From NCBI GenBank assembly GCA_020809705.1, contig CP085832.1, positions 3,286,001 to 3,350,000 on the forward strand: a stretch of 64,000 nt of DNA, in the 5' to 3' direction. Positions 462 through 50,490 of this stretch are shown in pieces. Both the position numbers and the translations under genes were made by a program. Position 1 is the stretch's first letter, and every line of letters starts with the position of its first letter. The notes under the pieces are model-generated. The model ran no database searches and had not been told where the DNA came from. It saw only the letters and a list, made by a program, of their open reading frames with translations. The DNA comes from Calonectria ilicicola. Lineage: Eukaryota; Ascomycota; Sordariomycetes; Hypocreales; Nectriaceae.

Positions 462-748
462 TCACAACTTCGCCGGTCCCATATTACTTTTATCGTCTTC
501 ATGCTTAGGCTGGATCGACTTGGTAGGAGCATCTTTCGTAACAATTGCAGCGTGCTGCAACAAACGGTCGGGAATAGAAGATGTATCGTAGAGAAAATGG
601 AGAAGCATTGAACTGCCTGTGTCTGGACTAGCTAAATGTCAGTATTATTGTCCGCTAATACCATCCTTTGAGTCTTTTTGGAGCAACGGGGAATAATTTA
701 GAGTTCATACCCGTGGAGCAATGTCTTAGATACAAGTGAATTATTCAT
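462..748 (-). CDS. Small YDTSS-family protein, copy 1
   Basis: I do not recognise this family; it recurs eleven times in the window. Exons are 748..711 (38 nt) and 612..462, separated by a 98 bp intron (GTATGA...GCAG) in phase 2. The product is 62 residues. Exon 1 gives MNNSLVSKTLLH plus a split codon. Exon 2 opens with SMLLHFLYDTSS and continues PDRLLQ, matching the family core, followed by a charged tail ending GPAKL. There is no signal peptide or membrane segment. A TATAAA lies 144 bp upstream of the ATG (minus strand, 897..892). The start is supported by the 38 nt first exon and phase, which are the same in copies 2, 4, 7 and 9. It is the most divergent SS-xxDRL member (IPDRLLQ in place of LQDRLIQ). 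The acceptor was chosen among several AG sites because only GCAG keeps the frame. Function unknown. Confidence 0.6.
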
Positions 749-891
749 GGTTCGATCCATAAGGAGCAATCCAGTCTTGGTTTACTGTATGTGAAGATAA
801 AGGGCACTTTGGGGGTAGAGGTGAAATTACCGATAATTAAAGAACCAGCTTGGGGATGAGAGTAGGGCTTCCATGCTGGTGTGGTCAAGAC

Positions 892-897
892 TTTATA
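892..897 (-). promoter_or_regulatory. TATA box of copy 1
   Basis: TATAAA on the minus strand, 144 bp before the inferred ATG. The spacing matches that of nine other family members. Confidence 0.5.
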
Positions 898-3800
898 GTT
901 GTTAGTCTACATGTGCGCCGCTTGGCTCCAACGAGGCAACCGACCTCACTTGTCAACACGCGGGCCAGTCAAGATGTATCAAACACGCAAAGAGGGGTTG
1001 TTACATGGGCAAGAGACTCGAATGGTATGTCCATTAGATCCTGGAGACAAGAATGATCAAAGATTAGAACTTGTTAGCCCCGCTCAGCTGCATATAACTT
1101 GAATGGTGCATCAATTAGCTCCTGGGGAAAACATAAGATAAATTGACAGGTCGCTCTTTCTACTGCTGGTGCCCCGCTCGGCTGCATACGGCTCGACAGC
1201 GAACTACGTAGTGACTAGAACTGCTTGACATGTCGTTTCTTCTGGCAGAGCTGCGACCGCTAGTGTCTGTGTGTCTCGATGAAAACTAATGCAGGGTCTC
1301 CCAAGTCTAGCAATATCCCGTGAGCTGGCTGAGTGGATCTATTTCGGCGTTCGTTTATTCGCTCTTTGGATGGACCCGCCCGTCGATTGCTCCACACTCA
1401 GTACAGGTTAGACCGCGCTTTGCAGCCATTCCCAGGTATTCAAGGGCCCTTCTAGTAATGATGGACCTTCTTACGGTACTTTGTTTGTGACGGCGAATCC
1501 AAGCTCACAATGCCCCCCTTTCCGGCATTCATTGGCCTAATTGATCATGTGCACCAAAGACGACTGCTTTGGGTCAACGAAGAGATTCGATGTCAATTAC
1601 CAAGACATGATGTCTCTATTGTGATGGAGAACGTGGGTTCGAACCCTTGACCTTTTGAAAAATTCGGGCTAGTCGGTGGAATAAATTTAGTTAGTCCGGC
1701 CGCAACACCCGGTCTTAGTGATAAAGAGCCTCTGGTCTGAACACCAAGGCACAACACAACAGCCTACACCCTTTTTATCAACATTCTTGCCCATTTTTAA
1801 GGCTTCCTTTTTAAAGGATCATTCGACCCAACAATCCTAGTGATATTTATGGTATTTATTTTATCTCTATTATATCTATTTTATTATTATTTCTCCGCAC
1901 AAACAGCTAGCATAGATGCTACATCGTCCCTCATACCTCTAGCAACATTCGACCTTCGATAGGTTTGGGCTGCGTGGGTGTGTTCCTTACTACGTCCAAC
2001 TCCGCCCGATTTCACTCTTTGTACCAAATGAAGAGGGGGAGGTCGATTCAACGAACGAATAGTAAGCTAGATAGTCGCGCCCGAGACGATCCGAGCTAGA
2101 AGTGGATAGGGTATCTAAATCCCAGTAGCCCACACGGCCCCGCAAGTTAGTGCCACTGACTTTACGAAGTCAGCAGAGCAAAGATAGGTGGTGGGAGTTG
2201 ATCATGCCAATACAGGCGGTCAAATTCATGCGTCCTATCATTTACGGTTTCGCTGCTGTTGGGACGTCCCCAAATATATACTCCGCCCAGCCAAAACTGC
2301 CTTCTTGGTAAGTCCAAGTTTGCGTCCCCAGTCGTTGCCAGCAGCTCCGGCAACGATGTAAACAGGCATCAAACGATCCATAAAGGGAAGCGCTCACTTT
2401 ACCTAGGTTAAGGCTCCTGTAAGTTCAAAGCCCAAGTAACGATGCCCCGCCCGATAGCGCACGTTTCGATCGTCAGTCCTCCCTTCTGATCCCTGATGAA
2501 GACCCAGAACCCACTCGGCTCCATCCTCTTGTATTTCTCCACCGTTGCAAACACAATCCAAGCTAATGCGATCAATTGTCCGCCAAACATGAAGTTTTTT
2601 AAAATAATTTCGTACTGTGATAGACAGATAGTGCAATTGAAGGCATTAACTTCCACGCTCAGTGTAGCCTCCATCTCATACCTGGGTTCACGCTCTCTTC
2701 CACTTCTCCAAATTTGCAGCAGAGTGCCGCACACCGTTGGGCCACTAGAACCAACCATTACATTTTGTCGGCATATCTTTTAGAATTAACAACAGGACCC
2801 GGGAGCCTTCTTTCAGCTCTCTCTGGCCCGCCAGCTCCATATCCACCATGTGGTATCTGAACTACCCTACACTGGTTCGTAGCCGCTATTGGAGAACGCT
2901 CCACGAATTCCGATTACTATTTCTTTCATTCAAGTTCTATATATTTGGGATGAAAGGTTTAAAAAAAAGTACTTGCTATTCGTAAAACTGGGGAGCTTCG
3001 TGGCCTGACACTTTGCACACGTCAAGGGCCAACTCACCGTCACATCAATCTAGACATCGACATCCTGTAATCTGCCCTTTATCGCACTGCTAGAGTCGTG
3101 CACCAGAATTCCCACACACGCGTGAAAGTCATCAGCTCGAAACAGGTAAGAAGATTTGGCCACACTTGACAGGAATGACCCTATCCGCCACAAACATGAG
3201 GAGTAAAGAGGACAAGAAAAAAGTATCAAAAGTTCGTGATTAGAATATTCACAAGAGCTAGGAGCTGACCAAGTACCGGACGACCCCGCGATGCCAAGGA
3301 AGAATCGCCGATTTGTCGGGGCTGCGACCGAGGATTTAGTAGCCGTTGGGCCGTGCCGGCCTCGGCTCGGTGGCGTTGTCTCGTAAGACGAGGGAATTGG
3401 GTGTGCGAGTATGTATATCGAGAGCCTCATTGCGAGATGGTGGTGTGTCATGTTGGGTGTGCTCTAGGCACTTAACGTTAGGAACTAGGACCATGGTTCT
3501 GGGGCTGGGTATCTTAGGCGAAGATTTTCCCATGGGCAGCTGGTTAATCAAGGGGAAATCCAAGGGGAGAGGTGAGGAGGAGACTGTGTCTGTTTTTCAG
3601 CAGGAGGAGGGAGCCCTTGATTACGGATGTGCTGTGTAACAAAGCCTCGTAAGTGCCCTACTACTTAGTATTCTAGGAGCTGCGGTTGAGTAAAAATGGA
3701 AACGCGGGCGTCTAGTCCAGTGCGTGGTCTCTGCCGGCCCGATACACGAGTTGTCTTTTTTCACAATCACATGTGCGGAACTCAACTATGTCGTGCCTTG

Positions 3801-5953
3801 GGTAGAGACACAATAAAGTTGTGGACTAAGACTTAGGCCTGTTGAGAAGACACCGTTTTGCCTATTATAGCATGGCTGACTACACACCATAGATCTCGGG
3901 GCGGAGAACTAAGATATCGAGAATCTACGCCGTCATATGGCTATACCATGAACAGGTGCAGAATAAATAGTAATCTTGAACAGTTTTGGTAGAGATGCCA
4001 AGCAAATTACTGAGTTGAATAGACTCGAGAAGCTCCATACCCGATCCTGATTCAGCCCTTCACATTACTACTCCAGCTCACACGCTGCAACTCCACTATG
4101 GGGCAAATAAAAAATTCTAGAACGTTTTTAAATAAAGAAAATGATGTCAACCCATGTTGACACAGTTTTTGTTTCCTACTTGCGTAACAGGAAACCAAAT
4201 GGGCACCCGCCCTCTGGTGGCTGCAAAGCGGTGCGAATCCTAGTCAAGCCGCGGCGCTGCGGACCTGTCGTGCTGTTTGTGCCTGACGTACCGTTTTGGA
4301 TAGGGAGGATGGCCGGCACAGGCTCTCGCGCCGCTTCGCCGCGGCATGAGTGGGAAAAGCAAAACGACAGCTTGGGCATGGGTCTGAGCTTCCAACGCAG
4401 AGCCGGTGTGCTGGAGCAGAAGCAGGGGACCTGGCCATGGAACATTTCCAGATGCTCCATGCACGACCAACCAGCCCAGACTAACGGAACTGGCCATTCA
4501 CACCCACCATGGACGCGCCCTGACTACACCACCCTGACCCACCACCCTCACAGTGTGGGTTCCAGAAATACTCGAAACCAGATTTTCGAGAGGAACTCAC
4601 AATGGTCACCAGCTGCGGAAACCATTGCTCACCTTACCTGCCCGGTCCCATGTCGGCCCGTAGCTGTTGTCCTTGTCCTTGTCCTTGTCTCCCGTAGTGG
4701 GTCCTGCCAGTGACTTTGTGTGTAAATGGGAGATTTTTCACAACTAGCATGACACCACACTTCTTGTTTCTTTCTCTGATAGCCGACCCGGTACGATATC
4801 TCAAATCATTTTTTTTTTCTTGGGTTAGTCTTAGGCTTAGTATACTCCTTCCGTTGTCTTTTATGCGCCTCAAGCTAAAGCCGTTGATTCTTCCGTCGTC
4901 CGCCTTCCATTCCAACCATGTACTTGTTCTCGCCCCTGTCAAGGAGATGTCACTCATCCAGCCAATTCTTTGCACTTCAACTGGTCATGAGCGACCTTGT
5001 TTTAATTTCACCAGATGGGTTGCGGAAACAAGTGACGTGGCTAAGAAGGAACATGACACAGTCGTCCTGCGCAGGGGGCTGAGGAAAGAAATAAGGTACC
5101 GGTATGCACTAGTTAATGCGGTTGCCGGGGGTGGGGAAGGGATCCTGACGCCTTGGCGGCCCTTGTGGTGGATGGCAGGGCGTCGGGACTTTGGCCGGTG
5201 CGGTATGTGGAACTCGCCTACAGGTACACATTCCCTGTCCTGCCTGCTTTTCGTGCTTGTCCTATTTAAGCAAACTGGACGGCCCTATGCTGCTCAACCA
5301 TATCTCAGTCAATACGAGTCCTGGTGTTTCATTCTCAATTTTCTTTTCCTTCGCCGGAGGGGTTTTATTTTTATCAATTCTCCGCACAATCATACCTCCC
5401 CCCTTGCGGAAGCCTTTCCCGTCATTCCTTTTTTTTTTTTCCTTTTCATTGGCTACGTCAAACTAACTAGTCAGTTCCGTTATGAGAATTAATGTCAATA
5501 TGTGGCTGCACAATCACACCACACAATCTAAACACATTTCATCCTCGAGATACTCAACTGCAATCACAATCATGTGATGCTTCATGTTGACTGGTATTGA
5601 TAACTAAGTTCTTGTGCCCAGTTTATTAGGATAGGAGGTAGGTATTGGGAGTTTCCTCCATAGCTGACTCAGGCTCTCTCTGTCCTGATGTTCGCCCTGG
5701 AGCTGTGTACATTTTCCTGATAACAAAGTGCGCTATTTCTCAACGTCAATATCGCAAGCCTCTCGACATTCCGGGAATGGTACTAGCAAAGATTTTTTAA
5801 TAATTTAAATCTAAATTTATTAATACAACTCATTCATTTCACATTTCCATATTCGGCACTAAATATAATTGAGAACTTCCCAATCTTACTTAACCATAAA
5901 TTCATCAAAGTCTCACCCACACCGTTCCATTCGGCTGTCCATGGTGCTACTCA
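898..5953. other. Gene-poor stretch
   Basis: No supported gene. Open frames of 190 and 260 codons at 4141-5492 lie in a GC-rich patch, contain no recognisable domain and overlap frames on the other strand. A minus frame at 2408-2758 includes a hydrophobic segment (about LIALAWIVFATV), and a faintly similar stretch lies at 7040-7640, so a degraded duplicated gene is possible. Short flank similarity also exists between about 2700-2760 and 7545-7590. Confidence 0.4.
4667..4689. repeat. Hexamer microsatellite (TTGTCC)n
   Basis: Nearly four tandem copies of TTGTCC. Simple repeat. Confidence 0.7.
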
Positions 5954-6251
5954 TTAAGACTTTTTGTTTCCAATCAGTTCGTTCTCCAGGTCTTTCTCAT
6001 TCCCATGTGAATCCTTTGTATGTTCCACGGTATCATGAGCTTGAGCCAAGCCATCATCAGCACCCTCTTTAGCAACAATCGAGGCTTGAATCAATCGGTC
6101 TTGAAGTGATGATGTGTCATAAATGAACCGGGCCAGCATTGCTTCACCAGTGGTGCTAGACGCATATGAGTTAAAGTCTCTCAAATACCAAGACCTGTTT
6201 CGGGAGGACATACCAGTTATGGCATCGACAATTGGATGAGAGGGAAGACAT
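5954..6251 (-). CDS. Small YDTSS-family protein, copy 2
   Basis: Member of the unrecognised small family; 79 residues. Exons are 6251..6214 (38 nt) and 6155..5954, with a 58 bp phase-2 intron starting GTATGT and ending CTAG. Exon 1 encodes MSSLSSNCRCHN; exon 2 begins TTGEA and then the canonical core MLARFIYDTSSLQDRLIQ. The tail is hydrophilic and acidic-basic (EGADDGL... EHTKD... ENELIGNKKS). No secretion signal. TATAAA lies 160 bp upstream. The closest relative is copy 4 near 17 kb, which shares tail residues (EGAD, EHTK), the same 58 bp intron length and a homologous promoter. This is the clearest reference copy. Function unknown; a soluble intracellular protein is the simplest inference. 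Confidence 0.72.
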
Positions 6252-6410
6252 TGTTATGATGTGTGCGGAGAGCAGAAGTGGTTTGACTCAATACAGGCAC
6301 CGATGACTAGATATGCCTTTGGGAAAATAAATAGGCATACAAATATGTGAAGGGCTACCTTTGCTGAAATTGACAAGAAAATAGCAATGAAGAGCTGACG
6401 GGATCCCATT

Positions 6411-6416
6411 TTTATA
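6411..6416 (-). promoter_or_regulatory. TATA box of copy 2
   Basis: TATAAA on the minus strand, 160 bp before the ATG. The equivalent box of copy 4 sits 156 bp before its ATG. Confidence 0.55.
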
Positions 6417-6463
6417 CTTTTACCCACGGTCACTCAGTATAGGGGGGAGGAAGGCAGCCGCCG

Positions 6464-6500
6464 CTTGCACATTGGGGCGCGGCGGCAGTGGGATGTAGGC
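6464..6500 (-). promoter_or_regulatory. Conserved upstream block shared by copies 2 and 4
   Basis: Plus-strand CACATTGGGGCGC, then a short variable gap, GGCAG, and GATGT(A/T)GGCGAG. The same block is at 17439-17475 in the same position relative to copy 4. It is more conserved than the surrounding duplicated DNA, so it may be an upstream activating site; recent duplication could also explain it. Confidence 0.4.
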
Positions 6501-11673: not shown

Positions 11674-11904
11674 ATGCCTCAAGTTACAGAACCATGCAAA
11701 ACTTCATGTCAGGATATTGAGCTGCAAGCCACCCGTTTTCGGGTAATGTACGACGCTTACATTTTGTTTAGACCCGCGAATCATGCGAACCATGATACAA
11801 CTTTGACTCGGTTTATATACGATACCTCGTCCCTACAAGATCGACTGATACAGAGGTCAATTGTTGACCAAGATGGAGAGAAAAAAGAGAGGGGGGGAGG
11901 TTAG
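11674..11904 (+). CDS. Small YDTSS-family protein, copy 3 (inverted, 5' end altered)
   Basis: The only family member on the plus strand. The core TLTRFIYDTSSLQDRLIQ is intact except that the initial Met-Leu is Thr-Leu. The tail is short and ends KKERGGG. The normal acceptor is recognisable (TTTAG before 11772, leaving one base before the next codon, as expected for phase 2). However, I cannot find a normal 38 nt first exon or a TATA box at the expected distance. The interval given is the unspliced open frame of 76 codons from an ATG at 11674; a spliced form with a distant first exon is equally possible. Either this copy has a new 5' end or it is a pseudogene. Conserved coding sequence is certain only from about 11780 to 11904. 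Confidence 0.45.
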   Translation: MPQVTEPCKTSCQDIELQATRFRVMYDAYILFRPANHANHDTTLTRFIYDTSSLQDRLIQRSIVDQDGEKKERGGG

Positions 11905-16896: not shown

Positions 16897-17224
16897 CTAG
16901 CCACGTCCATGATTGTACTCATTGCTAAAACTTCCTATTCCGAAAAAATCGCTCTTCAGGTCTATCTCGTATCCACGCGTAGCTTTTGTATGCTCCTTGT
17001 TATTGTGAGGTCCTGGCAGGTCAACATCAGCACCCTCAGTCATGGTGGCTGGTGCTTGCATCAGTCGATCTTGAAGGGACGATGTGTCGTGAATGCACTG
17101 GGCCAGCATTGCTCCACGAGTCTTGGGACTAAACCTGTGTGAGTTGAAGCTTCTAGAATACGGGAAAGTGTTTCGAATGGACGTACGATTTGTGGCCTTG
17201 GACATTGAGTGAGGGTAAGGGCAT
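16897..17224 (-). CDS. Small YDTSS-family protein, copy 4
   Basis: Paralogue of copy 2; 89 residues, among the longest in the family. Exons are 17224..17187 (38 nt) and 17128..16897, with a 58 bp phase-2 intron (GTACGT...TTTAG). Exon 1 encodes MPLPSLNVQGHK; exon 2 starts PKTRGA then MLAQCIHDTSSLQDRLMQ. The Tyr of the core is His here and a Cys replaces Phe. The tail shares EGAD and EHTK with copy 2 but ends differently (NEYNHGRG). A second ATG lies in another frame of exon 1; the chosen ATG is the one that splices in frame with the core and gives a 38 nt exon. TATAAA is 156 bp upstream, and flanks on both sides align with copy 2, so the gene was duplicated with its promoter. Confidence 0.7.
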
Positions 17225-17379
17225 GGTTGCGCTATGTGTGTGGAATAGAGGTGGTACACCTGAACACATGTATCGATAGCTTGATGTGTCTTGGGACAAG
17301 TTTATGTGTAGAGATGTGAAGGGTAATCTTTGCTGGTACTGGCAAATACATGGTAATAAAGAGAGGGCATGATCCTACC

Positions 17380-17385
17380 TTTATA
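17380..17385 (-). promoter_or_regulatory. TATA box of copy 4
   Basis: TATAAA, minus strand, 156 bp before the ATG. Confidence 0.55.
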
Positions 17386-19329: not shown

Positions 19330-19540
19330 TTAGTTCGCACAATTATCTTCAATTTCATCCCGGGATCTCGACCACTTGCATATATTTTCGTTTGCCTCAT
19401 TGATTGACCTCTGTATCAGTTGATCTTGAAGGGATGACGTGTCATAGATGAACTGGGCCAACAGTGGACCTGTCCTCTGGGAGCTTAAAAAGACTAAGTA
19501 ACGTATATCGTGTACATATTGATATCTCGAGACAAAACAT
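19330..19540 (-). CDS. Small YDTSS-family protein, copy 5 (shortened)
   Basis: The conserved exon is clear: LLAQFIYDTSSLQDQLIQ followed by RSINEANEN and a short tail ending IEDNCAN, stop at 19330. The core Arg is Gln and the core Met is Leu. The 5' end is uncertain. My preferred model uses an ATG at 19540, a 25 nt exon and a 46 bp intron (GTACAC...ACAG; 19515..19470), giving 54 residues in phase 1, unlike its relatives. A 38 nt exon can be read from the same ATG but has a poor donor (GTTACT) and leaves an intron that is too short. The tail aligns with copy 6 (IEDNCAN against IEARCANGS) but stops earlier. TATAAG lies 143 bp upstream. It may be decaying. Confidence 0.45.
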
Positions 19541-23159: not shown

Positions 23160-23455
23160 TCAGGGAGCATGGCCCACCGCACGTTCCTCCTTTGCCGTGG
23201 AACCATTTGCACAGCGGGCTTCGATTTTATTCTTGAATCCTTCTCTCTTGTATGAATCTCGGCTCGCCTCAGCGATTGACCTCTGTATCAGTCGATCTTG
23301 TAAGAGGGACGACGTGTCATCAATGAACCGTGCCAACATTGGACTCTGTTCCTTCAAGCTAAATAACAATGAGCATCGCATCTCAGGGGGGGATGAGTAG
23401 CTCACATATCAGGATCAAGAGACAGAACTTTAGACAGGTCTGTAATGCGATCCAT
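23160..23455 (-). CDS. Small YDTSS-family protein, copy 6
   Basis: 82 residues. Exons are 23455..23406 (50 nt) and 23358..23160, with a short 47 bp phase-2 intron (GTGAGC...TTTAG). Exon 1 encodes MDRITDLSKVLSLDPD; exon 2 begins LKEQSP, then MLARFIDDTSS, LLQDRLIQ. There is one extra Leu between the SS and LQDRL blocks, making it intermediate in length between the two subfamilies, and Asp replaces the usual Tyr. The tail is rich in Lys, Arg and Glu and is the closest match to copy 5 (QRSI, then IEARCAN). TATAAA is 146 bp upstream. The start is the only in-frame ATG that splices cleanly in phase 2. Confidence 0.66.
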
Positions 23456-23783: not shown

Positions 23784-23895
23784 CGACGTCTTGATCGAAG
23801 ACGTCTTGATCGAAGACGTCTTGATGAAAGACGTCTTGACAGAAGACGTCTTGACAGAAGACGTCTTGACAGAAGACGTCTTGCTCCTCAACGTC
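23784..23895. repeat. Tandem 15 bp repeat with GACGTC palindromes
   Basis: Seven exact GACGTC hexamers at 15 bp spacing (23785, 23800, 23815, 23830, 23845, 23860, 23875), most within the 10 bp palindrome AAGACGTCTT, with a degenerate eighth unit near 23890. Spacers are TGATCGA, TGATGAA or TGACAGA. Because 15 is a multiple of three, every frame repeats: EDVLT/EDVLI on plus, and KTSSV/KTSSI on minus. The plus frame runs on to a stop at 24057 without a known domain. It may be a coding repeat of a lost gene or a protein-binding array. Confidence 0.75.
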
Positions 23896-27990: not shown

Positions 27991-28288
27991 TCACTTGGTA
28001 GAGAAACCTCCGTCCCTCTTACTGTGTGGGGTCTGCTCATCCCTGGTAACGTCAATACTGTTTTGAGGTCGGGATGAATCGGTGTTGGTGTCGTTTGAAG
28101 TGACCATTGAGGTTCGCATCAACCGCTCCTGTACGGAGGAGGAGGTATCATAAATAAACTGAGCCAACATTGAGGCACTGCTATCGGAATTAGAAAAGTC
28201 ATCAGTCAGTGGATGTTGGAGGCCTGGAAAAGCCGTTGCGTATAGCATACATTTGATGGTCGTTGGCATCGGTTGAGGAGGAAGACAT
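27991..28288 (-). CDS. Small YDTSS-family protein, copy 7 (SSSVxERL type)
   Basis: 75 residues. Exons are 28288..28251 (38 nt) and 28180..27991, with a 70 bp phase-2 intron (GTATGC...GATAG). Exon 1 encodes MSSSSTDANDHQ, closely matching copy 9 (MPVSSTDVNEHK). Exon 2 gives SAS then MLAQFIYDTSSSVQERLM. This is the SSSVxERL subfamily, with one extra residue and Glu in place of Asp, shared with copies 9 and 10. The tail is Ser/Thr/Asn/Asp-rich (SNDTNTDSSRP) and ends GGFSTK. TATAAA is 145 bp upstream, followed by ATCGCCGTCA, which is also present after the TATA of copy 10. Confidence 0.7.
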
Positions 28289-31129: not shown

Positions 31130-31402
31130 CTATAAAAACTGTCTAATAGCGCTAAATACAAATTGTTCGTCCACTAAAACTGCTATGGTGAACCTGGGCT
31201 GCCCTCCCCCATCTGGAGGCTTCACTGCCCCAGCGTCGCTCCCCTTTGGCGGAGTCATCGATTGCTGTAAAAGTCGATCTTGGAGAGACGACGTATCGTG
31301 AAGAAACCGAAGAAGCATCTTGGTGTGATTCTGGAGGCTGAGAAGATATGAGTCTTTTGGCATAGTTCCATTGGGTCTGCTTTGCTTTGGAGGATTGCAC
31401 AT
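31130..31402 (-). CDS. Small YDTSS-family protein, copy 8 (apparently unspliced)
   Basis: Contains MLLRFLHDTSSLQDRLLQ and a Pro/Gly-rich linker (PPKGSDAGAVKPPDGGG) followed by a more hydrophobic tail ending IRQFL, unique in the family. From the ATG at 31402 the frame is open to the stop, giving 90 residues (MCNPPKQSRPNG...). This ATG lies 143 bp from a TATAAA (31550..31545), the family's usual spacing. At the place where a 38 nt first exon should end, the sequence is AAC then TATGCC, as if the G of a GTATGC donor were lost and the intron absorbed into coding sequence. An upstream ATG at 31471 is also in frame. Intron loss or readthrough explains it best; degeneration is possible. Confidence 0.55.
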   Translation of the reverse strand: MCNPPKQSRPNGTMPKDSYLLSLQNHTKMLLRFLHDTSSLQDRLLQQSMTPPKGSDAGAVKPPDGGGQPRFTIAVLVDEQFVFSAIRQFL

Positions 31403-31544
31403 ACCGTTTGCTTCTGGAGACGAGTAGGGTTTGGCGCGAAGCTGTTCGAACCGAAAGTATCTTTTGCACATATAATATGATTATTTAAAGGGTCGGAGGG
31501 TTGCACGGCAAGCATACTTGTAAATAGCGAAAAGGAGCCGGGTT

Positions 31545-31550
31545 TTTATA
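31545..31550 (-). promoter_or_regulatory. TATA box of copy 8
   Basis: TATAAA, minus strand, 143 bp before the ATG at 31402. The spacing was used to choose that start. Confidence 0.45.
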
Positions 31551-32961: not shown

Positions 32962-33256
32962 TCAAGCCTGACCACCTTGTGGGGGCTGCTGGTTTCGGGC
33001 ATCTTCAACACCATGCTGAAGTTGAGAGGCGTCCCCATTGGTACCATTTGGTATGGCAATGCGAGGTTGAATCAATCGCTCGTGGACGGAGGAGTCAATG
33101 TCGTAGATATACCGCTCTAACATTGAGCCATTATTTTCGGCACTAGAAAGTCACTAGTTAGCGCCATCATCTATTTCATGAGTCGGAAGGCCTGGAAAGT
33201 TCTTTGGGTGTAACAGACGTTTTGTGCTCGTTAACATCGGTGGAAGATACAGGCAT
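32962..33256 (-). CDS. Small YDTSS-family protein, copy 9 (SSSVxERL type)
   Basis: 72 residues. Exons are 33256..33219 (38 nt) and 33142..32962, with a 76 bp phase-2 intron starting GTCTGT (non-optimal; the others start GTATGT/GTATGC) and ending TCTAG. Exon 1 encodes MPVSSTDVNEHK, a clear match to copy 7. Exon 2 starts AENNGS then MLERYIYDIDSSVHERLIQ: the TSS of the core has become IDS, but SSVHERLIQ equals copy 10. The tail is Gln/Asn-rich and ends QQPPQGGQA. TATAAA is 128 bp upstream. The upstream flank aligns with copy 7. The weakened donor makes efficient splicing less certain. Confidence 0.66.
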
Positions 33257-33383: not shown

Positions 33384-33389
33384 TTTATA
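33384..33389 (-). promoter_or_regulatory. TATA box of copy 9
   Basis: TATAAA followed on the minus strand by GTCAGCATCG, resembling the post-TATA sequence of copies 7 and 10; 128 bp before the ATG. Confidence 0.5.
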
Positions 33390-34184
33390 TAGACTTGCTC
33401 GACAGTTGAACCCGATGGGCCAGCTGAGACATGCCCTGTTACGGGAAGTCTTCCCATGGCGTTCAAGGACGGTAACAAGTGGATGTTATTATTAAATGTC
33501 GTAGATAGTTGGGTTATTATTTAAATGCTCAGTGTTCTTCCCAAGTTGCCGTCGTTATTTTTTGTGGAGGTGGGTGTGCTCCAAAGGATCCATATTTGCT
33601 CATGTTCCGCAGAAAGCATAAGATCAAGGGGAGATGGAGTATTCGGAACTTGAGTAAACGTATCTCCAGATGGCGATTAATTAACGAAGGCCATTGCTCT
33701 TCCGTTGCGTGGGACCGTGGCTGACTGCTGGGGAACGGCTAAATTTTCACACGGCTCGGCTGTCCTGCTGTGCCTTGCAAGCGCTCTGGTACGTGAATGT
33801 GGGGTTCGGTTTCGGCAACCCATGAGTTGCAACGTCTGGTTGAGTCAGGAGGTGGTAGCTTCGAGGGTTGGAAGAATACGGCGAGGTTACTAGTCCTTCC
33901 GTTGAACTTGCCCCCCCAGAGTGGCGGCCATGGAATTTGCGACCGATTCCGAGCTCAAGCCGAAATGAAGCCCATGGGTAGATAAGAGAGGGCGCCTATT
34001 GGTAGCTTGGTTTCACATTAAATACCCGAGGCCGGCCTGACAGCTGACTCGATGCTTGGTTGTCTCGTAAGGCACTCTTCTGCTACCACACTAGGACAAG
34101 TCATTGTTGTGATAATTTTAAATAAAAAGAAACAATTTAGTACTCTAGGCATGGCCATGTGAGCTTTGAGCCGAAGCTTCCTGG

Positions 34185-34915
34185 TTAGTTGCGAGGAAAC
34201 TGAGGATTATGACTCACAAGGCGGTCTGGCACTCCAGGATAACATTCCCACACCAGACCGATCAGCTGAGCTTGATATGCTCCTCTCTTTTTCAGTAATA
34301 TAATCGAACAGCGACGTGTAGATAAGAGCAGGCTTGCTGTCCCAAGGGTATTGTCTCTATCCTCATCGGTCATTGACGTAATCAGTCACTGTTTGTGTGA
34401 GATTCAGGGGATCCTGCCGTCTGTCTTGTCGCCTCGGTAATGTATTGGTTCTGAAATCAGAGGATTATCGTAGTCCGTCATTTGGATGATCGCGTCACAC
34501 TGGTTTAATTGGAGGAGAGAGACTTGCGTAGGCCAAGCCCGCTTCATCGACCGAGACCTGTTGGATGCTTCGCATTAGTTGTTGGAAAGGAGCGGGCCAA
34601 GTGATTCCGCTCCAGTAGGTTTGTAAAGGAATAGTTACCATGAATCGGAGCCCAAATATGGACCACTGGTCTGCTCTAGTTGAAGTTGGTCTTGTGAAGT
34701 TCCTTCTGCAGCCATATCGCTGAATCTGTTAAGACCAAGCGCGTCTGGTCTGAAATGTCGCGAGAGATAATGGCTTGGTCCCGACCGGTGTAACATTCGT
34801 GGGAAAAAGAAACGGAGGCCTGATAATAAACCAACGTGTCTCTGTCTGGTTTGTAAAGATGAGAAATAATGACAAGGAAAAGGGGCACGGGAGAAGAAGA
34901 GGAGCCGCGGGTCAC
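34185..34915 (-). pseudogene. Possible gene X, copy 1 (two conserved frame segments)
   Basis: Two minus-strand frames are shared with the paralogous block. The 5' segment (34915..34676) contains DTLVYYQASVSF and ends KELHKTNFN with a stop; its partner at 38801..38514 reads DTVHYYHVSVPF ... SQELHVNRG and continues without a stop. The 3' segment (34373..34185) begins DEDRDNTLG, with partner DDDNRDDALG at 38323..38120. Conservation of DTxxYYxxSVxF suggests a former or present coding exon, but exon joins are unclear and the stop here differs from the partner. I do not recognise a family. Treat as a degenerate gene pair. Confidence 0.35.
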
Positions 34916-36236: not shown

Positions 36237-36242
36237 CCGCGT

Positions 36243-37031
36243 TATGGTAGCACATTAGAGCCACTTCCCCAAAAGTGCAAATAGATAAGTATATATTATT
36301 ATTTTGGTTATTATATTAAATTAATTAGTAAAGTAATAGTTTAAGTATAATTATTTTTTAAAAATAATATTTATTTAATTATTTATTAAATTTAATAATA
36401 TAATATAAAATAATATTTTAATAAATTATAAATTTTAATATATATTTTTTATTATTTTTAATATAATATTATTTAAATATTATATTTTTTATAATTAAAA
36501 TTATTTATTTATTAAAAAATATATTAATAAAACTTTTTATATATAATTATTTTTTATATTATATATTAAATATTAATTAAAATTTATTAAAAATAAATCA
36601 AATATAAATTTTAAAATTAATTTTATAACTTATTAAAAAATAAAATTTATATATAAATTTTAAATATTTTATATTTTTATTAATAATTTTAATATAAATA
36701 ATTAAAAATTTATTAAAAAAAAATATTAAAATTTAAAAAAAATTAATATAAAAATATAATAAATTTAAATTTAAAAAAAATATTTTTATAATAAATATTA
36801 TTAATAATAAATATAAGATTTAAATAAATAAAATTTAAAAAGAAATAAGATTTATTTATAAAAATTAAAGAAAGCAATTCCAAGGTTAAGGAAAAAGAAG
36901 GGCCAGATAGTACCTATCTAAGTAATCAAAAGTGCTTTTTTTTTCATTTATATTTAGTGAAAATACAATTATCGATAATACACACTTATCTATTTACACT
37001 TTTAGGGAAGTGGCTCTAATATGCCACCATA
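36243..37031. mobile_element. 789 bp TIR element with A/T-only core
   Basis: Terminal inverted repeats of about 56 bp: the left end starts TATGGTAGCACATTAGAGCC and the right end, read inward, starts TATGGTGGCATATTAGAGCC. Only about six positions differ, all C/T or A/G transitions. Direct repeats CCGCGT flank the element (36237-36242 and 37032-37037); they extend to CCGCGTTA if two bases are shared with the element. The core (about 36290-36870) is almost entirely A and T and has no open frame. The paralogous block near 41335-41345 lacks the element, giving an empty site. It is non-autonomous (MITE-like); the transposon superfamily cannot be settled from the ends. A/T bias and transition differences suggest repeat-induced point mutation. 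Confidence 0.75.
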
Positions 37032-37037
37032 CCGCGT

Positions 37038-37639: not shown

Positions 37640-38119
37640 AAACCTTTCGAAAGCGACCATCACCGTGTGGGTGCTCGGGTCGTCCGGAGGATCCATAGTC
37701 GTTCATGTCTCATAGAAGGCATGGGATCAAGCGGGATCTAGTAGTCGTATCTTGATCAAACACATGGAAGATGGCAGCTAAATAATAGCGACTGTCGTGA
37801 TGATGGTGTGGAGCCTACTGGACGTTGGAAAACAGCTAAACTTTCGCGCGGCTCGGCTGTCGTTGAGGTATGTCTATTGTGCCTTGGGAGAAACCAGTAG
37901 CTGAGTCTTGAAGTTCGGTTTCTGGGAATCAATGGGTCGTGACTCGGCAGATTGCAAGCTTGGTTGAGTTAGGGGCGTGATGAAGAGAATATGGCGAGGT
38001 TACTGGTTGGCTAGTTGAACTCACGCACCCGTGTCATGGACTGTCGTTGATTCTGGGCTCAAGTCGACCGAGATTATGAGCGAGTGCAAAAGGGCACCTG
38101 TCGGTAAGGCGTGGTCTCA

Positions 38120-38801
38120 TTACGTGGCCTGGAGCAGAGCCACTAGTCCGCTCAAATTCTGTTTCCTCGCGAGGCACCCTCTACCACCACACCAGAGATT
38201 AATTTGCTGAACCAGACATGTCCTTCCATTTCGCGTAAAAGATTCTGGGCGTCGGTATGGAAATGATGGAGTGTTTACTAGCCCAAGAGCATCATCGCGG
38301 TTGTCATCGTCCGCTGCCATCATTCACCGTTGCTGGTATACAAGTCATGGGGGTCCGACCGGTCTATTATCGTCTAGGTGATGTCGTGTTTCCTTGGCTA
38401 GAGAACTGCACCAGTTAATCGCCTTGTCGACCGCGTCACAGTGCATTGGTTGGAGAGGCGACTTGGGTTCGTCAGTCCTGCTTCATCGATCTAAATCTGG
38501 CAAATGCTTCACGTCAGCCGTAAGAGAGAAGTGATCTCACCCCACTGAGTTTGTACAAAATAGCTGCCATGAAGCGGAACCTGAATATCGACCTGCCCCT
38601 GTTGACGTGGAGCTCTTGCGAGGCTTCATCCATCTGTACACACAACTGATATCCGTCGGCGTCAGCGAGGTTGATCTGGAATGATCGAATAAATAATAAT
38701 CTGGCCCCAACGGGCCTATTGTTTGTGGCAAATGGAACTGAGACGTGATAGTAATGCACTGTGTCCTTGTTTGTTCCTATCAAGCTGAGATTGGAGGACA
38801 C
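38120..38801 (-). pseudogene. Possible gene X, copy 2
   Basis: Paralogue of the frames at 34185-34915. The 5' segment is open for over 95 codons from at least 38801 (the first codon there is GTG; the frame continues upstream without an obvious ATG), containing NKDTVHYYHVSVPF, an acidic stretch and FRFRFMAAILYKL. The 3' segment holds DDDNRDDALG. Here the sequence corresponding to the stop of copy 1 is read through. Unrecognised; no start, splice sites or domain could be fixed. Confidence 0.35.
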
Positions 38802-38907
38802 GATCGCCTCATCGAGAGAAAATAAAGGGGCAGGAGGAAGAAGGAAAAAATGAGTCTTGCGCTGATCACCCGAGCACTTTAGCTGGCTGCCTTGTCCGTG
38901 GCTCGGA

Positions 38908-38920
38908 CTAGGCTGTTTAT
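38908..38920. repeat. Target-site duplication of element A, left
   Basis: CTAGGCTGTTTAT, exactly repeated at 40038-40050. Confidence 0.8.
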
Positions 38921-40037
38921 CGAGTTTTTTTTTTTTTTTTTATTAATGCAGGTGCACTACAAGGCCGAAGTACCCTAGCCTTAGGAAATAACTAGACAAT
39001 TGAAGAGTTTTTACCTGAACACGCGTAATGGTGTGAGGCTTGGAACCATTGAACCAAAATACCCAAAAGTAAATGCATAGGCTGCACAACCTCTGATCGA
39101 CCCTCCTGAATAGTAAACTTTCGGTTGGATGAGTCATGTAACGATGAAGGTTTTGACACAACCAACGTTAGAGTTAACAATACCGTTGTGTTCAGCCGGT
39201 TGGGTGAAAAGCTTCTTCAACCTTTGGAACGGGCCCACACAACAGCAGTCATAACAGCGGTTCCAAGGGAACGCAGAAGTCTGAATGCCTTCAAGTCAAA
39301 CAGATGTTTGAAAACCTAGAAATGCGGCCAAAGAGGTATCTGAATCTGCAGATAAAAGAAGCGGATTTTTCACTGAAGATGTCATCTCAATTCACACCTT
39401 CAAGAAGACTGTCAACCCCTCAAACCATCAACTTGTGCGAACGTTCAACGCACTTCTTCTGCCTCTGACTGATATCAACGTCGTCGATCCATTCGCACGC
39501 TACTGGTGGTCATTGCAAGTACTTCCACCACGTTTATCAATCACAAACAACACTGCGGCCTCCGAGCTCCACACACCACAGCACACAACATCGCTCCTCT
39601 TCACAAAGAGACATACCTCGAGCAACAGCTGGTACCACGCGAACAAACAAACCAACCACCGCCCGCGATGCCTCCAATCAACTGGACAGCCCAAAAGGAG
39701 GAGGATGAAGCCACATTCAGCAACATCATGAAAAGTGTTGCTATTGAAATTGTCAAGGAGGCCCTTATCCGCTATGGGGGTAAGGCTATTGATTGGTTCT
39801 TCAGCCTGGTTGGGAAAGGCTGTGTTGCAGCTTGGGGTAAAAGGAAGGAAATGATGCCTTCCATCAATAACTTGGCTATTGCAGGCACAACAACGGCTAT
39901 GGATTATATTAATCCAACACGAAGACGTGCTAGGGAGGAATATAGCCCAGTCTAAGCCATAGTTTGAATAAAAACGCTCTTCAGGCCCCAATCAGCTCGT
40001 TCACAGTGGGTGTTTTATCTCTCCAAACCCAGGAGGG
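38921..40037. mobile_element. 1.1 kb element A with 13 bp target duplication
   Basis: Starts CGAG plus a long T-tract and ends CCCAGGAGGG, exactly as element B (48519-49616). It is bounded by perfect 13 bp direct repeats. The first ~450 bp are homologous to element B, as is the last ~35 bp (GTGTTTTATCTCTCC and following); the middle differs between the two. The T-tract read on the minus strand is a poly(A) near the 3' end, which suggests target-primed retrotransposition. The poly(A) is followed by CTCG, which is unusual. No reverse transcriptase is present, so it is non-autonomous. Copy 1 of block X gives the empty site. Confidence 0.72.
39668..39955 (+). CDS. Hypothetical 95-residue protein inside element A
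   Basis: ATG at 39668 preceded by a CA/CT-rich leader, open to the stop at 39955, with AATAAA at 39967-39972 just beyond. The protein starts MPPINWTAQKEEDEATFSN, then has an amphipathic-to-hydrophobic stretch (IEIVKEALIRYGGKAIDWF, then FSLVGKGCVAAWG) and a basic end (PTRRRAREEYSPV). No family recognised. It lies in the part of the element that is not shared with element B, so it would be element-specific cargo. A 163-codon frame on the opposite strand lacks an ATG start. Confidence 0.35.
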   Translation: MPPINWTAQKEEDEATFSNIMKSVAIEIVKEALIRYGGKAIDWFFSLVGKGCVAAWGKRKEMMPSINNLAIAGTTTAMDYINPTRRRAREEYSPV

Positions 40038-40050
40038 CTAGGCTGTTTAT
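40038..40050. repeat. Target-site duplication of element A, right
   Basis: CTAGGCTGTTTAT, identical to 38908-38920. Confidence 0.8.
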
Positions 40051-43385: not shown

Positions 43386-43652
43386 TTACGAACGATTCTT
43401 AATTTTAATCCCCGAAGAGTTACCTTTAGATTGTATGGAGCTGCCATTGTGATTATTTTGTACGGCGGTCGAGGCTTGTATTAGCCGCTCATGGACGGAG
43501 GACGTAGTGTCGTAAATGTACTGAGCTAGCATTGAACCGATGCCCTCAGAACTTGCGGTTGATTCATCAGTCTTTCTCTCAAGCATATAACTTTCAGGCC
43601 AAAAGGGTGTGGTATACCTTTTGGGATCGCAAGTTTGAGGAGAGAGAGACAT
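43386..43652 (-). CDS. Small YDTSS-family protein, copy 10 (SSSVxERL type)
   Basis: 66 residues. Exons are 43652..43618 (35 nt, one codon shorter than most) and 43551..43386, with a 66 bp phase-2 intron (GTATAC...GCAAG). Exon 1 encodes MSLSPQTCDPK; exon 2 begins SEGIGS then MLAQYIYDTTSSVHERLIQ. SSVHERLIQ is identical to copy 9. The tail is Asn/Ser/Lys-rich and ends KIKNRS. TATAAA is 152 bp upstream, with the ATCGCCGTCA element just after it as in copy 7. The sequence downstream of the stop carries the same fragment found downstream of copy 9. Unspliced, the frame is also open, so intron retention would give 88 residues. Confidence 0.68.
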   Translation of the reverse strand: MSLSPQTCDPKRYTTPFWPESYMLERKTDESTASSEGIGSMLAQYIYDTTSSVHERLIQASTAVQNNHNGSSIQSKGNSSGIKIKNRS

Positions 43653-43803
43653 GATTGATTGAGAAGATCGTGAGTGTACACGTGGATAATTGTATATTTG
43701 CAGATGTGATTGAAGGGGCCGGTGGATCTGGAGAGAGATCAGATGTCTGAAAACAGATGAGGAAGGGAGGAAGCGCTGTATGGTGAATGACGGCGATCTG
43801 GGT

Positions 43804-43809
43804 TTTATA
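43804..43809 (-). promoter_or_regulatory. TATA box of copy 10
   Basis: TATAAA on the minus strand, 152 bp before the ATG and followed by CCCAGATCGCCGTCA. Confidence 0.55.
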
Positions 43810-46800: not shown

Positions 46801-48019
46801 ACCAATGTTAGATCTATTATTTGATATAGCCAAACAAGGAGCAGACCAGTCGTGATTTGGACTAATCATGATTTTCCCCAGAAACACCCGAGCCACAAAG
46901 GTGGTAGATAGGAATGCCTTCAGTAGCTTTATTTGGTCTTCATGGCGTACCCGGCTAAAACAATCGACCGAATCCATTGCGCGATACAACCCTGGATTGA
47001 TCGGTGTTTGTATTTATAAGGTCATGTACCGTAGTTTTTGCTACCCATGTAAAATGCTTCCATTTTAAGAATCGCTTACTGATCGTGGAAAATATCTGGT
47101 GCAATTTTGCCCGGCTTATTCCCTAATCGCGGCTTGGCATTGATCTAGGCAAACTATTTAACTTTAGCTGTCTCGTATTCTTGATGGGGAAATTGTTCAT
47201 CTGTTCCTTAATTCTCAGCATGATTGATAATCAGTAGCTAAGGCGGCTATTATCAATTAAATTGCCTAGCTACACTCTCTCCTTTAACGCGTTGTAGGTT
47301 TGTGTTATTGCCTTTCCGCTAATTGTTGACAATTTGCAGCGAGCCCCTTTGTTCATTTCTGTCAATTGCATTTTCACCACCAGGGGTTCGCGCCAATTAT
47401 TCCTAGCAAGCCTTATCTTTATCTGAAGTCAAACGTACTGTGTGCCGTCCACTTTGCCTCAAGCCAGAGCAGCCATCAGCACCGAGGCTCCCACTACATA
47501 CTTTAAACATTCAATTTTCCAAGCCGTTTAAGTCATTATTTAGGCTTTTATTTGACGGATGCTACAAGTTAGCCGCATACATGGAGTGGTATGAGCTGCA
47601 ACATGCTCTGATTAAATTTCGAGGCCTCCAGATCACGAGCCAGAATTAGGCGCGGGCCTCAGAACGTCCCTGAAAAATACGACACTCTGATTGGAGTCAT
47701 CTAAATCAGAACGGCAAGTGGATTTTAAGTACCGGCATAACGCCAAGGTAGTACATATAAGAAGTCGTACCTATGCGCGGTATGTGAAGGTCAAGGTTTA
47801 ATCTGTTCGAGTATTGAATGGGCAAGCGCGTATGTTGCCGGTCCACAAGTTATGGCAGTGATTATGATGTTGATTCAGATGATTAGACCAGAGCTTTAAA
47901 TGTGAGGGGAAAGGGATTCGGCCAAGGTATACGCACATACACAACGATTGTAGCATCAAATTTTGACCTTTGTAGGTTGTACGTAGTAGGTGACTGGTTG
48001 TTCTTTGGTCAAGGATGCG

Positions 48020-48145
48020 ACATACTTGATTTAGAGCATAAGCAAAGATAAGCATCTGACCCTCGTTGATAGAGTGCATTAGTGTGATCCTGCAGTCATG
48101 GTTGTGTTACCGATGTAGATGGTGTGGATTTTGTTTAGCTAGGGG
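48020..48145. repeat. Fragment repeated from 32660-32785
   Basis: GCATTAGTGTGATCC ... ATGGTGTGGATTTTGTTT here against GCATTAGTGCGATCC ... ATGGTGTGGGTTTTGTTT there. Differences are mostly transitions. Confidence 0.6.
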
Positions 48146-48299
48146 CCCCCTCCACCTTCCTACACCTTCTTCACCTTACAGGTCGCAGAATTTGATTGCG
48201 CTAAACATCAATTGAGTAACAAAAAGAAAATGAGCAAAAATAATTGTAAACTGTTCTCGTTCAAATTATTTTACCCATTTGTTTTATTTATCTTAGTTT

Positions 48300-48430
48300 T
48301 GTTTATTGGGCAGTCTGGGAATAGCAGGAACGCAGAATGGGGGCAATCTTTCACAAGTTATGTTGTAATCGTAAGAAAACGTGTCAAATTATTGTGAAAA
48401 AAATTATTTCGCGTTTCTAATATAATAAAT
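48300..48430. repeat. Recurrent repeat, copy 3
   Basis: TGGGAATAGCAGGAACGCAG then GGGGCAATCTTTCA and a tail matching 37430-37500. Confidence 0.6.
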
Positions 48431-48505
48431 CCGCTTCTCTGAGCTTTGGTGTCGGTAATCGTACAGAGAAAACACAGTTGTATCCAAACATTATAATGAA
48501 GGGAA

Positions 48506-48518
48506 GATGAGACGTAAT
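48506..48518. repeat. Target-site duplication of element B, left
   Basis: GATGAGACGTAAT, exactly repeated at 49617-49629. Confidence 0.8.
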
Positions 48519-49616
48519 CGAGTTTTTTTTTTTATTAATGCAAGTGCACTACAAGATCAAAGTACCTTAATAACTTTAGAAGATAACTAAATAATTAAAA
48601 AGATTTTATCTGAGTGAAATAGTATAAGGTTTTAAACTACTTAATTAAAACACCAAAAGGTTTTAATACAATAGAAGCTTGTACGTTGCGTAACCTTGGG
48701 AAAAAGAGTTATTGGCCTTTATCATAGCTCTTACAAAGCTTCCTAGGATGGTAAGCTTCCGGAATATTTCGCCATCCAAGGCAACATATACAGCTGGCCT
48801 CGGCAGCGCAACTCACTTGGAAGGACCAACTTTGCGCGGCTGGATGAGGCATGTGACGATGAAGGTTTTCACAGAGCCAATGATAGAGAATACCGTTGCG
48901 TTTCCACGGTTAGGTAAAGCTTGCTATGAACGGGCCCACACAACTGTAGTCAGAGCTTCGGTTCCAAGGGAACACGGAAGTCTGAATGCCCTTAATTTCT
49001 AAGAAGCTTGGAAGTCTAGAAATGCAGCCAAAGAGGTATCTTCTGAACCTGTAGATAAAAGCAGCAGGCTTTTCCAAATTGAGATTTTAATCCCCATCCT
49101 CAACACAACTGCTGCCACTTTCTTCGTCATTGTTCTAAGCCAAGCATCCGCATCTCCAACGCAAACAGCGACTCGCTTGAAGCCACTGTTGCGAAGATCG
49201 AGACCGCCCTGCCACCGCACAAAACCACCCTTCTTGCACTGCTCGCCGAGGGAGCCACTTATGCGATCAAAGAACTCATACTCTCGCAAGTACTTTAAAG
49301 CTTGCTTTTAACTTATAGGTATATATCTTGATATACCTCTTATTATATTATTAACCAAATAAATAAAATACCTATCTTAAGTATTATTATAGCTAGATTA
49401 ATTATTATAAGTATAATTATTATTATAAAAGTAATTAAGGATTGTTATTAATAAGTTTCTAATACTTATATACCAAGAAGGCAAGTTAGGCAGCCTAGGC
49501 GGACTAGGCTAGTTGGAGGACTGGGGTGGGCCAGATGAGCCAAAGCAACCAGGCAAGCAAGGCGGGCCAACCGGGCCTAGGGGGGTGGGTGTTTTATCTC
49601 TCCGAACCCAGGAGGG
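48519..49616. mobile_element. 1.1 kb element B with 13 bp target duplication
   Basis: Same ends as element A (CGAG plus T-tract on the left; CCCAGGAGGG on the right). The left ~500 bp are homologous to element A with many A-for-G and T-for-C changes. The middle is unrelated: a segment with short frames at about 49100-49300, then an A/T-rich stretch (49310-49470) and a G-rich one. No ATG-initiated frame comparable with the one in element A survives. It is probably an older copy damaged by repeat-induced point mutation. Confidence 0.7.
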
Positions 49617-49629
49617 GATGAGACGTAAT
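49617..49629. repeat. Target-site duplication of element B, right
   Basis: GATGAGACGTAAT, identical to 48506-48518. Confidence 0.8.
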
Positions 49630-50265
49630 TTATCTAATTCGCGTAGACTTTCCGCCTGCTTGGGCTGGCCTAATTGATTTGGAATACTCAGGATGGGCTA
49701 ATGTATTTAGCATGCATGAACTCGGCTATCCCATATGGGATTCTCGAACTACGGTACGTTTCCCTAACACTAGCTCGAAGTTCGAAGCTTTCGGTCTTTT
49801 TTCTTCTGGAACTAGTGGTGGTGGACAGATCCCATGATGTCTACTGACTCAAGTTCTTGAAACACGCCCCAATATTCCTGTCCCTCATTCGCTATCTCGA
49901 GTTCATCCCCACACTCGCACACCCTAAATACAGGTTGGGTTCATGGCGCTTAGATTTACCTTTCTGGTGCCAAATAAAGTCCGCAAATAACAGTCATATG
50001 AATGGTCAAAATACGTGATTGGATAAGAATAATGATGTAAGTATATCAAGTTTGTTATCTTTGCTTCACAGCCTCGCTCGAGGCTACTAGACCTGATCCT
50101 TCATTCGGAGTAATAGGGCATGGGCAAGATGAACAGATAAATGACTTTGTTTGAAGCGTGGATGACATTATTGAACTCATTGAACTCATTTCATGACTCT
50201 TGATACCCCAACCAAACTCCAAATACTAATGCGAACCCCCTTAATGCACTTGGATAACAGAAAGA
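49630..50265. other. Gene-free stretch
   Basis: 3' flank of copy 11. I see nothing else in it. Confidence 0.45.
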
Positions 50266-50490
50266 TCAAATTCTGGACGATGCGCTATTTGCCTGGCAGG
50301 AAGGATTAGAGGCAGCCAGGTCCTGACTATTATGCCTAGGGACTGTTCCCTGCATGAGTCGATCTTGGAGGGAAGATGTATCATAAATGAATCGGGACAG
50401 CATGGGGCTATCGGTGTCGGGGCTGTGTAAAAGTGGTTAGGCTAGCATCGATAAAGCGAGGGGGGTTTCTTACGTGACGTAACTGCTCAT
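50266..50490 (-). CDS. Small YDTSS-family protein, copy 11
   Basis: 57 residues with the start used here. Exons are 50490..50474 (17 nt) and 50422..50266, with a 51 bp phase-2 intron (GTAAGA...ACACAG). Exon 1 encodes MSSYV; exon 2 gives PDTDSP then MLSRFIYDTSSLQDRLMQ, a near-consensus core. The tail is short and Ser/Asn-rich (HNSQDLAAS... SASSRI). An in-frame ATG at 50520 would add MNSFKTSHST and make the first exon 47 nt; the MSS start resembles other copies, so I keep 50490. TATAAG is 165 bp from 50490 (135 bp from 50520). It is the copy closest to the core-gene block. Confidence 0.66.

What the first reader, a model, noticed from the sequence alone, without database searches (positions are those of the whole stretch)
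462..50490. Eleven-copy family of tiny, unrecognised genes dispersed through a gene-poor region
Translating both strands shows the same core, about MLARFIYDTSSLQDRLIQ, at eleven places (0.5, 6.1, 11.8, 17.0, 19.4, 23.3, 28.1, 31.3, 33.0, 43.5 and 50.4 kb). Most copies are missed or truncated by single-frame reading because of a small first exon. The core is conserved while the tails diverge almost completely. A fixed module with fast-changing tails and repeated duplication is the pattern expected of conflict genes (effectors, recognition factors, spore killers or their antidotes), but I recognise no such family, so function is open.
Basis: partly seen in the sequence, partly recalled or inferred. 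Interest (0 to 1): 0.88.

Follow-up and report, generated by a model that had tools for sequence, protein, structure and literature searches.

The report
Fusarium-family microproteins, many missing peroxisome tags
Eleven copies of a tiny gene family without a known domain lie in one region of a fungal genome; related proteins in Fusarium share the same 18-residue core and often end in a predicted peroxisome address tag that nearly all copies here lack, so they likely act as small docking adaptors in or around peroxisomes.

Summary
In detail: the core is at all eleven places, ten above anything in 60 shuffled windows; the eleventh is tied in by a 372-nt match to another copy. Two further copies lie outside the window. 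Most copies have a TATA box and a short predicted first exon with a phase-2 intron. The core is under purifying selection (pN/pS 0.27); tails diverge about as much as introns and flanks.

The family is not unique to this genome. Profile searches found 90 relatives; those with an organism name are almost all Fusarium and other Nectriaceae hypothetical proteins, clustered in several species. New point: 41 of 90 end in a canonical PTS1 peroxisome signal (SKL 25, AKL 12, ARL 2, SRL 2), against about 0.3% expected. In the window only copy 608 does (AKL). No useful Pfam and no PDB match; AlphaFold confidence is low, with a helix in the core.

Best reading: predicted disordered microproteins whose core docks on an unknown partner and whose tail sends them into the peroxisome or not. 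Spore-killer or effector status is not supported. The genome-wide census failed: server unreachable.

The parts
462..748 (-). Copy 608: two-exon gene model, core MLLHFLYDTSSIPDRLLQ; the only window copy ending in a canonical PTS1 (AKL)
   Evidence: predicted splice sites; TATA box at -289 from the core
5954..6251 (-). Copy 6139: two-exon gene model (58-nt GTATGT intron), consensus core, ends KKS
   Evidence: 833-nt unit shared with copy 17109
11674..11904 (+). Copy 11800: the only copy on the + strand; core begins TLTRF (ATG lost), short tail, no convincing intron; probably decaying
16897..17224 (-). Copy 17109: two-exon gene model (GTACGT intron), sister of copy 6139, ends GRG
19330..19479 (-). 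Copy 19464: exon-2 segment; core begins LLAQF (ATG lost); first exon unclear; probably decaying
   Evidence: sister of copy 23339
23160..23455 (-). Copy 23339: two-exon gene model; core with one extra Leu (SSLLQDRLIQ); ends HAP
27991..28288 (-). Copy 28170: two-exon gene model, subgroup with core DTSSSVQERLM; ends STK
   Evidence: sister of 33123
31130..31515 (-). Copy 31318: core MLLRFLHDTSSLQDRLLQ; first exon uncertain (best model phase 0)
   Evidence: TATA box at -232
32962..33256 (-). Copy 33123: two-exon gene model (non-consensus GTCTGT donor), core MLERYIYDIDSSVHERLIQ; ends GQA
43386..43652 (-). Copy 43532: two-exon gene model, core MLAQYIYDTTSSVHERLIQ; ends NRS
50266..50520 (-). Copy 50403: two-exon gene model (start at 50520 or 50490), core MLSRFIYDTSSLQDRLMQ; ends SRI (not counted as canonical PTS1)

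Best explanation
This is a locally duplicated family of tiny proteins that are predicted to be largely disordered and that likely work as docking adaptors: the conserved 18-residue core would bind one unidentified partner protein, and the tail would decide, by presence or absence of a predicted peroxisome signal (PTS1), whether the complex enters the peroxisome. Shown by sequence: the core M-L-x-x-[FY]-[IL]-[YH]-D-T-S-S-[LFV]-x-D-R-L-x-Q is under purifying selection in this genome and is shared across Fusarium and other Nectriaceae; 41 of 90 database relatives end in SKL, AKL, ARL or SRL; PTS1-ending and PTS1-lacking members have consecutive or near-consecutive locus tags in four species. Predicted: a helix that begins after the T-S-S of the core. 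Inferred: Pex5-dependent import, a single shared partner, and a role for PTS1-less copies (10 of 11 here by the strict rule) as cytosolic versions that hold back or compete for that partner.
For: Core selection: pN/pS 0.27 over 20 codons; heterozygosity by codon position 0.23/0.14/0.54 in 13 copies. In five pairs of copies the core is 70-85% identical at DNA level, while the next 56 nt (54-62%) are no better than the intron stretch (37-69%) or upstream stretch (46-63%). Relatives: 58 at E<=10 with the first profile, 80 with the second, 90 distinct proteins. Core columns in an alignment of 81 sequences (72 relatives, 9 window copies): L2 81, S11 81, D8 80, R15 80, M1 78, T9 78, D14 78. PTS1: 41 of 90 against 0.3% expected per position; in the first 58 relatives the tripeptide occurs 33 times at the end and 4 times in 3917 internal positions. 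The ending varies only within the PTS1 rule while the core-to-end distance varies from 42 to 51 residues, so the signal seems kept rather than one inherited stretch. PTS1+ and PTS1- neighbours by locus tag: FALCPG4_013525 (AKL), 013526 (VGN), 013527 (VDK); CEP54_001989 (VDK), 001993 (AED), 001994 (AKL), 001998 (AKL); MRS44_010551 (AKL), 010554 (NPK), 010556 (AKP); ACJ41O_008493 (AKK), 008494 (ARL), 008495 (KEE). Tree: the PTS1 label needs 8 changes against about 31 in shuffles (near-copies help this). AlphaFold: helix 36-50 of P0030 after DTSS, block pLDDT 69-73. TATAAA[AG] at -360 to -160 in 9 of 13 copies, 3.5% expected per random 200-nt stretch.
Against: Only 1 of 11 window copies (608) and neither outside copy carries a canonical PTS1, so in this genome the peroxisome link rests on one copy and on relatives; a PTS1-bearing orthologue elsewhere in the genome could not be sought (server unreachable). 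49 of 90 relatives lack PTS1, among them a clade of 17. No partner is known; Pfam, NCBIfam and PDB give no useful match. AlphaFold confidence is low (pLDDT 55 and 59). No RNA evidence. The tree has 48 columns and 52 of 91 inner branches are open.
Confidence: 0.4

Rival explanations
1. Conflict genes: spore killers, antidotes or effectors with a fixed module and fast-changing tails.
For: Local amplification (11 copies in 50 kb, one more 4.4 kb outside); variable tails; the Fusarium spore-killer candidate Skc1 is also tiny (70 aa; PMC4978907, section 20 part 1).
Against: Relatives occur in many Fusarium species and other Nectriaceae, whereas Skc1 was reported with BLASTP hits only in the F. oxysporum complex. 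Tails diverge about as much as introns and flanks. A peroxisomal ending is not expected of a secreted effector, and a crude hydrophobicity look found a hydrophobic N-terminal stretch in 6 of 69 relatives of 60 aa or more, in 4 of which it is the core itself (no signal-peptide program was run).
Confidence: 0.12
2. A wholly cytosolic regulatory role for the core; the -KL endings are a docking sequence for something other than Pex5, or a remnant without function.
For: A clade of 17 relatives (cores of the kind DTSSFSDR[LQ]VQ) lacks PTS1 throughout, and 10 of 11 window copies lack it; the core is conserved with or without PTS1.
Against: The endings follow the PTS1 rule in 41 of 90, over several clades and several lengths.
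Confidence: 0.28
3. A decaying cluster: one useful ancestral gene was duplicated many times and most window copies are drifting pseudogenes.
For: Loss of the core ATG in 11800 and 19464, a non-consensus donor in 33123, absence of PTS1 in 10 of 11 copies, drifting tails.
Against: The core is kept in all eleven with a synonymous bias, and 8 of 11 window copies keep a phase-2 two-exon model scoring 4 or more, although sister copies differ at about a third or more of flanking sites.
Confidence: 0.15
4. A transposon or other mobile repeat whose short frame is copied along.
For: Several copies, both orientations present (10 of 11 minus, 1 plus).
Against: Shared units are roughly gene-sized (about 360-870 nt in the longest matches); no transposase-like Pfam match in 43 long open frames; relatives are annotated genes with a C-terminal signal often kept in other species; the one completed genome search gave six matches, two outside the window.
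Confidence: 0.03

Closest known systems
Unnamed hypothetical proteins of Fusarium and other Nectriaceae (e.g. FZEAL_9935, FALBO_11006, MRS44_010556, the 68-aa F. graminearum protein P0032)
   Same: Same size, same 18-residue core, variable flanks, neighbouring loci in several species
   Different: 41 of 90 end in a canonical PTS1; in the window one of eleven does
PEX39 (human C6ORF226, yeast Yjr012c), a small peroxin (PMC12339391, passages seen)
   Same: Small protein in which short motifs dock on a peroxisomal import factor; a works-like comparison only
   Different: PEX39 has a conserved (R/K)PWE motif that binds PEX7; 0 of 90 relatives here have it, and their core is different
Piggyback import into peroxisomes (Pnc1 on Gpd1, PMC5314374; review PMC4680570; seen only as titles and abstract starts in a search listing)
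   Same: A protein without its own signal rides in on a signal-bearing partner: the kind of mechanism proposed here
   Different: Here the proposed carrier would be a dedicated microprotein and no passenger is known
Skc1, F. verticillioides spore-killer candidate (PMC4978907; outline and section 20 part 1 seen)
   Same: Tiny Fusarium protein (70 aa) with no recognised domain
   Different: Reported hits only in the F. oxysporum complex; ours are in many Fusarium species and other Nectriaceae. The sequences were not compared

Membership tests
The Nectriaceae core family defined here | 18-residue core with L2, D8, T9, S11, D14, R15 | tested here: met
   All eleven window copies carry the core; five columns are invariant in the eleven (L, D, S, S, L). 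Departures: T9 is I in 33123, D14 is E in 28170, 33123 and 43532, R15 is Q in 19464
PTS1 peroxisomal matrix proteins | C-terminal [SAC][KRH][LM] (rule recalled) | tested here: inconclusive
   Met in 41 of 90 relatives but in only 1 of 11 window copies
PTS1 peroxisomal matrix proteins | Pex5-dependent import | not testable with these tools
   Needs localisation in cells
PEX39 | (R/K)PWE motif | tested here: not met
   0 of 90 relatives; motif from PMC12339391
Spore killer Skc1 | Reported distribution: BLASTP hits only in the F. oxysporum complex | tested here: not met
   Relatives here in F. graminearum, F. avenaceum, F. solani complex, Stylonectria, Cylindrodendrum against the statement in PMC4978907
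Spore killer Skc1 | Sequence similarity to Skc1 | not tested
   The Skc1 sequence was not fetched
Meiotic drivers in general | Transmission bias, presence/absence polymorphism | not testable with these tools
   No population data or crosses
Lipopeptide (CaaX) pheromone precursors | C-terminal CaaX (rule recalled) | tested here: not met
   1 of 90 relatives has Cys four from the end (P0014, CEHE), 0 of 11 window copies do
Transposon open frames | Match to a transposase or similar domain | tested here: not met
   64 family members: two single weak Pfam matches (E 0.13 and 0.19), neither a transposase; 43 neighbouring frames: nothing better than E 0.0094

The most novel reading that the evidence does not exclude
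A peroxisome-entry switch built from paralogous microproteins: PTS1-bearing members ferry one partner into the peroxisome through the shared core, and neighbouring PTS1-less duplicates, dominant in this genome, bind the same partner and keep it out, so copy number and promoter strength tune where that partner works.
Probability: 0.15. Interest if true: 0.75.

Novelty: new variant of a known kind. Interest (0 to 1): 0.5.

Why it matters
It ties together dozens of scattered Fusarium hypothetical proteins and gives them a first testable place in the cell. Fungal peroxisomes have roles in sexual development and in plant infection (abstract starts in the listings). A conserved 18-residue motif is easy to tag, delete or use as bait, so its partner could be found quickly, and the mix of signal-bearing and signal-less neighbours makes the choice of compartment by gene duplication directly testable.

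Tried and rejected
Rejected or empty: known protein domain (Pfam; NCBIfam on 5 relatives, one match at E 0.0017 in P0059, far below its cut-off); solved structure (PDB, 0 matches); RNA family; tRNA; CaaX ending and PEX39 motif; a PTS1 hidden downstream in other frames (three PTS1-plus-stop within 500 nt of 13 cores, one of them the true end of 608, the other two at 326 and 429 nt; background 0.06 per 500 nt). Other repeats in the window showed no clear codon-phase pattern and were set aside. Literature searches on the core letters (0 papers), Skc1 (16), PTS1/Fusarium/small proteins (37), microprotein (46), meiotic drive and SKL (63), piggyback (74), orphan/tandem (75) listed no paper whose title or abstract start describes this family; full texts were not read for this and most subscription journals are not held.

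Weak points: gene models rest on a home-made splice score; pN/pS sums all pairs of 13 copies, which are not independent; segment identities use fixed bins laid out on one copy, and unrelated DNA aligned this way gives about 40%; the next tail bin (110-200 nt) is 39-67%; the core counts used a pattern that fixes several columns, so the pattern-free counts are given instead; clusters are read from locus tags, no contig was seen.
Full report
What is there. A six-frame scan of the window with the quoted core finds it at all eleven places. Scores of ten copies (36-87) exceed the best in 60 shuffled windows (31); copy 33123 scores 28 because of an extra residue but matches copy 28170 over 372 nt. 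Ten copies are on the minus strand, one on plus. The window's genome (69.9 Mb, 12 contigs, unnamed) could be searched once: six matches at E<=0.001, four in the window, one 4.4 kb before it and one on another contig. That search missed seven window copies at this cut-off and the server was unreachable afterwards, so the copy number is a lower bound.

Gene anatomy. A TATAAA[AG] box lies between -360 and -160 of the core in 9 of 13 copies (3.5% expected in a random 200-nt stretch). In ten of 13 copies the best two-exon model scores 4 or more on a home-made scale, and nine of these ten have a phase-2 intron (47-98 nt, counting tied models) just before the core, although phase was not part of the score; their first exons are 17-50 nt long (worked out). 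Copies 11800 and 19464 have lost the core ATG and a clear first exon; 31318 is uncertain (phase 0).

Selection. Over 20 core codons in 13 copies pN/pS is 0.27 and variation sits in third positions (0.54 against 0.23 and 0.14). In five pairs of copies the core is 70-85% identical at the DNA level, the next 56 nt 54-62%, the intron stretch 37-69%, the upstream stretch 46-63%. The core is held; the tails drift about as non-coding DNA does. This does not call for an arms race.

Relatives. One spliced model found a single protein, FZEAL_9935 of Fusarium zealandicum, with the identical 18-residue core, at a non-significant E of 0.23. A profile of fourteen sequences, P0001 included, found 58 proteins at E<=10; a second profile of divergent members found 80 (where only the 7994 best candidates were scored); 90 distinct proteins together. 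Where an organism is named they are hypothetical proteins of Fusarium (including F. graminearum, F. oxysporum, F. solani, F. avenaceum), Neocosmospora, Cylindrodendrum, Stylonectria and, weakly (E 7.5e-4), Zalerion; many others come from metagenomes without a name. The commonest length is 66 aa (20 of 90). Neighbouring locus tags: ACJ41O_008493-5, MRS44_010551/4/6, FALCPG4_013525-7, CEP54_001989/93/94/98. One protein (P0059) holds two cores. No convincing Pfam match in 64 members and no solved structure.

The peroxisome link. Forty-one of 90 relatives end in SKL (25), AKL (12), ARL (2) or SRL (2) (recounted). At a random position about 0.3% would; in the first 58 relatives the tripeptide occurs 33 times at the end and 4 times in 3917 internal positions. 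The endings vary only within the PTS1 rule while the distance from core to end varies (42-51 residues), which points to a kept signal. On a rough tree of 96 rows and 48 columns the label needs 8 changes against about 31 in shuffles; a clade of 17 (cores of the kind DTSSFSDR[LQ]VQ) lacks it entirely. In four species members with and without the signal have neighbouring locus tags. In the window only copy 608 ends in AKL; 50403 ends in SRI; the other nine and the two outside copies have nothing similar.

Structure. AlphaFold on two alignments gives low confidence (pLDDT 55 and 59). In P0001 it draws one short helix, residues 44-50; in P0030 two, 19-26 with low confidence and 36-50 with block pLDDT 69-73. 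Both core helices start after T-S-S. The invariant Ser and the Asp three residues later look like a helix cap (recalled rule). The helical hydrophobic moment of the core is 0.52 against 0.21 for a strand.

Mechanism. I commit to a docking adaptor: the core binds one partner; the tail, when it ends in PTS1, takes the complex to Pex5 and into the peroxisome; PTS1-less duplicates stay in the cytosol and compete. Shown: core, selection, PTS1-type endings, neighbouring mixed loci. Predicted: helix, disorder. Inferred: import, partner, competition.

Rivals. Conflict genes are not supported: the family is widely present, tails drift like non-coding DNA, and Skc1 has a different reported distribution. 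A cytosolic role with meaningless endings and a decaying cluster both remain open; the lack of PTS1 in ten of eleven copies here counts for them. A transposon is disfavoured.

Surroundings. From 53 kb on, ordinary gene families begin: CobW-type nucleotide-binding domain, Tsr1, a BING4CT WD40 protein and a family 64 glycosyltransferase. None of the sixteen 4-kb blocks of the window has a positive RIP index; an AT-rich palindrome at 36.2-37.0 kb does.

Noticed in passing
window 36238-37036: A 0.8-kb AT-rich (11% GC) imperfect palindrome with 62-nt arms, 89% complementary; the only stretch with a positive RIP index among those tested.
   Followed up: partly
window 33563-34864 and 37666-38790; 39116-39411 and 48828-49111; 38931-39070 and 48523-48661: Old duplications at 61-74% identity without the core and without clear codon-phase bias; possibly remnants of larger duplicated units between the core genes.
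   Followed up: partly
core position 1, e.g. window 6139: The core begins with Met in 78 of 81 aligned sequences, just after the intron; it might serve as a second start codon giving a short isoform when the intron is kept.
   Followed up: no
protein P0059 (FALBO_5255, F. albosuccineum): 171-aa protein with two cores in a row, either a fusion of two neighbouring genes or an annotation join.
   Followed up: no
window 23785-23883: 15-nt tandem repeat, 6.6 copies, 94% matches, upstream of copy 23339 on its strand.
   Followed up: no
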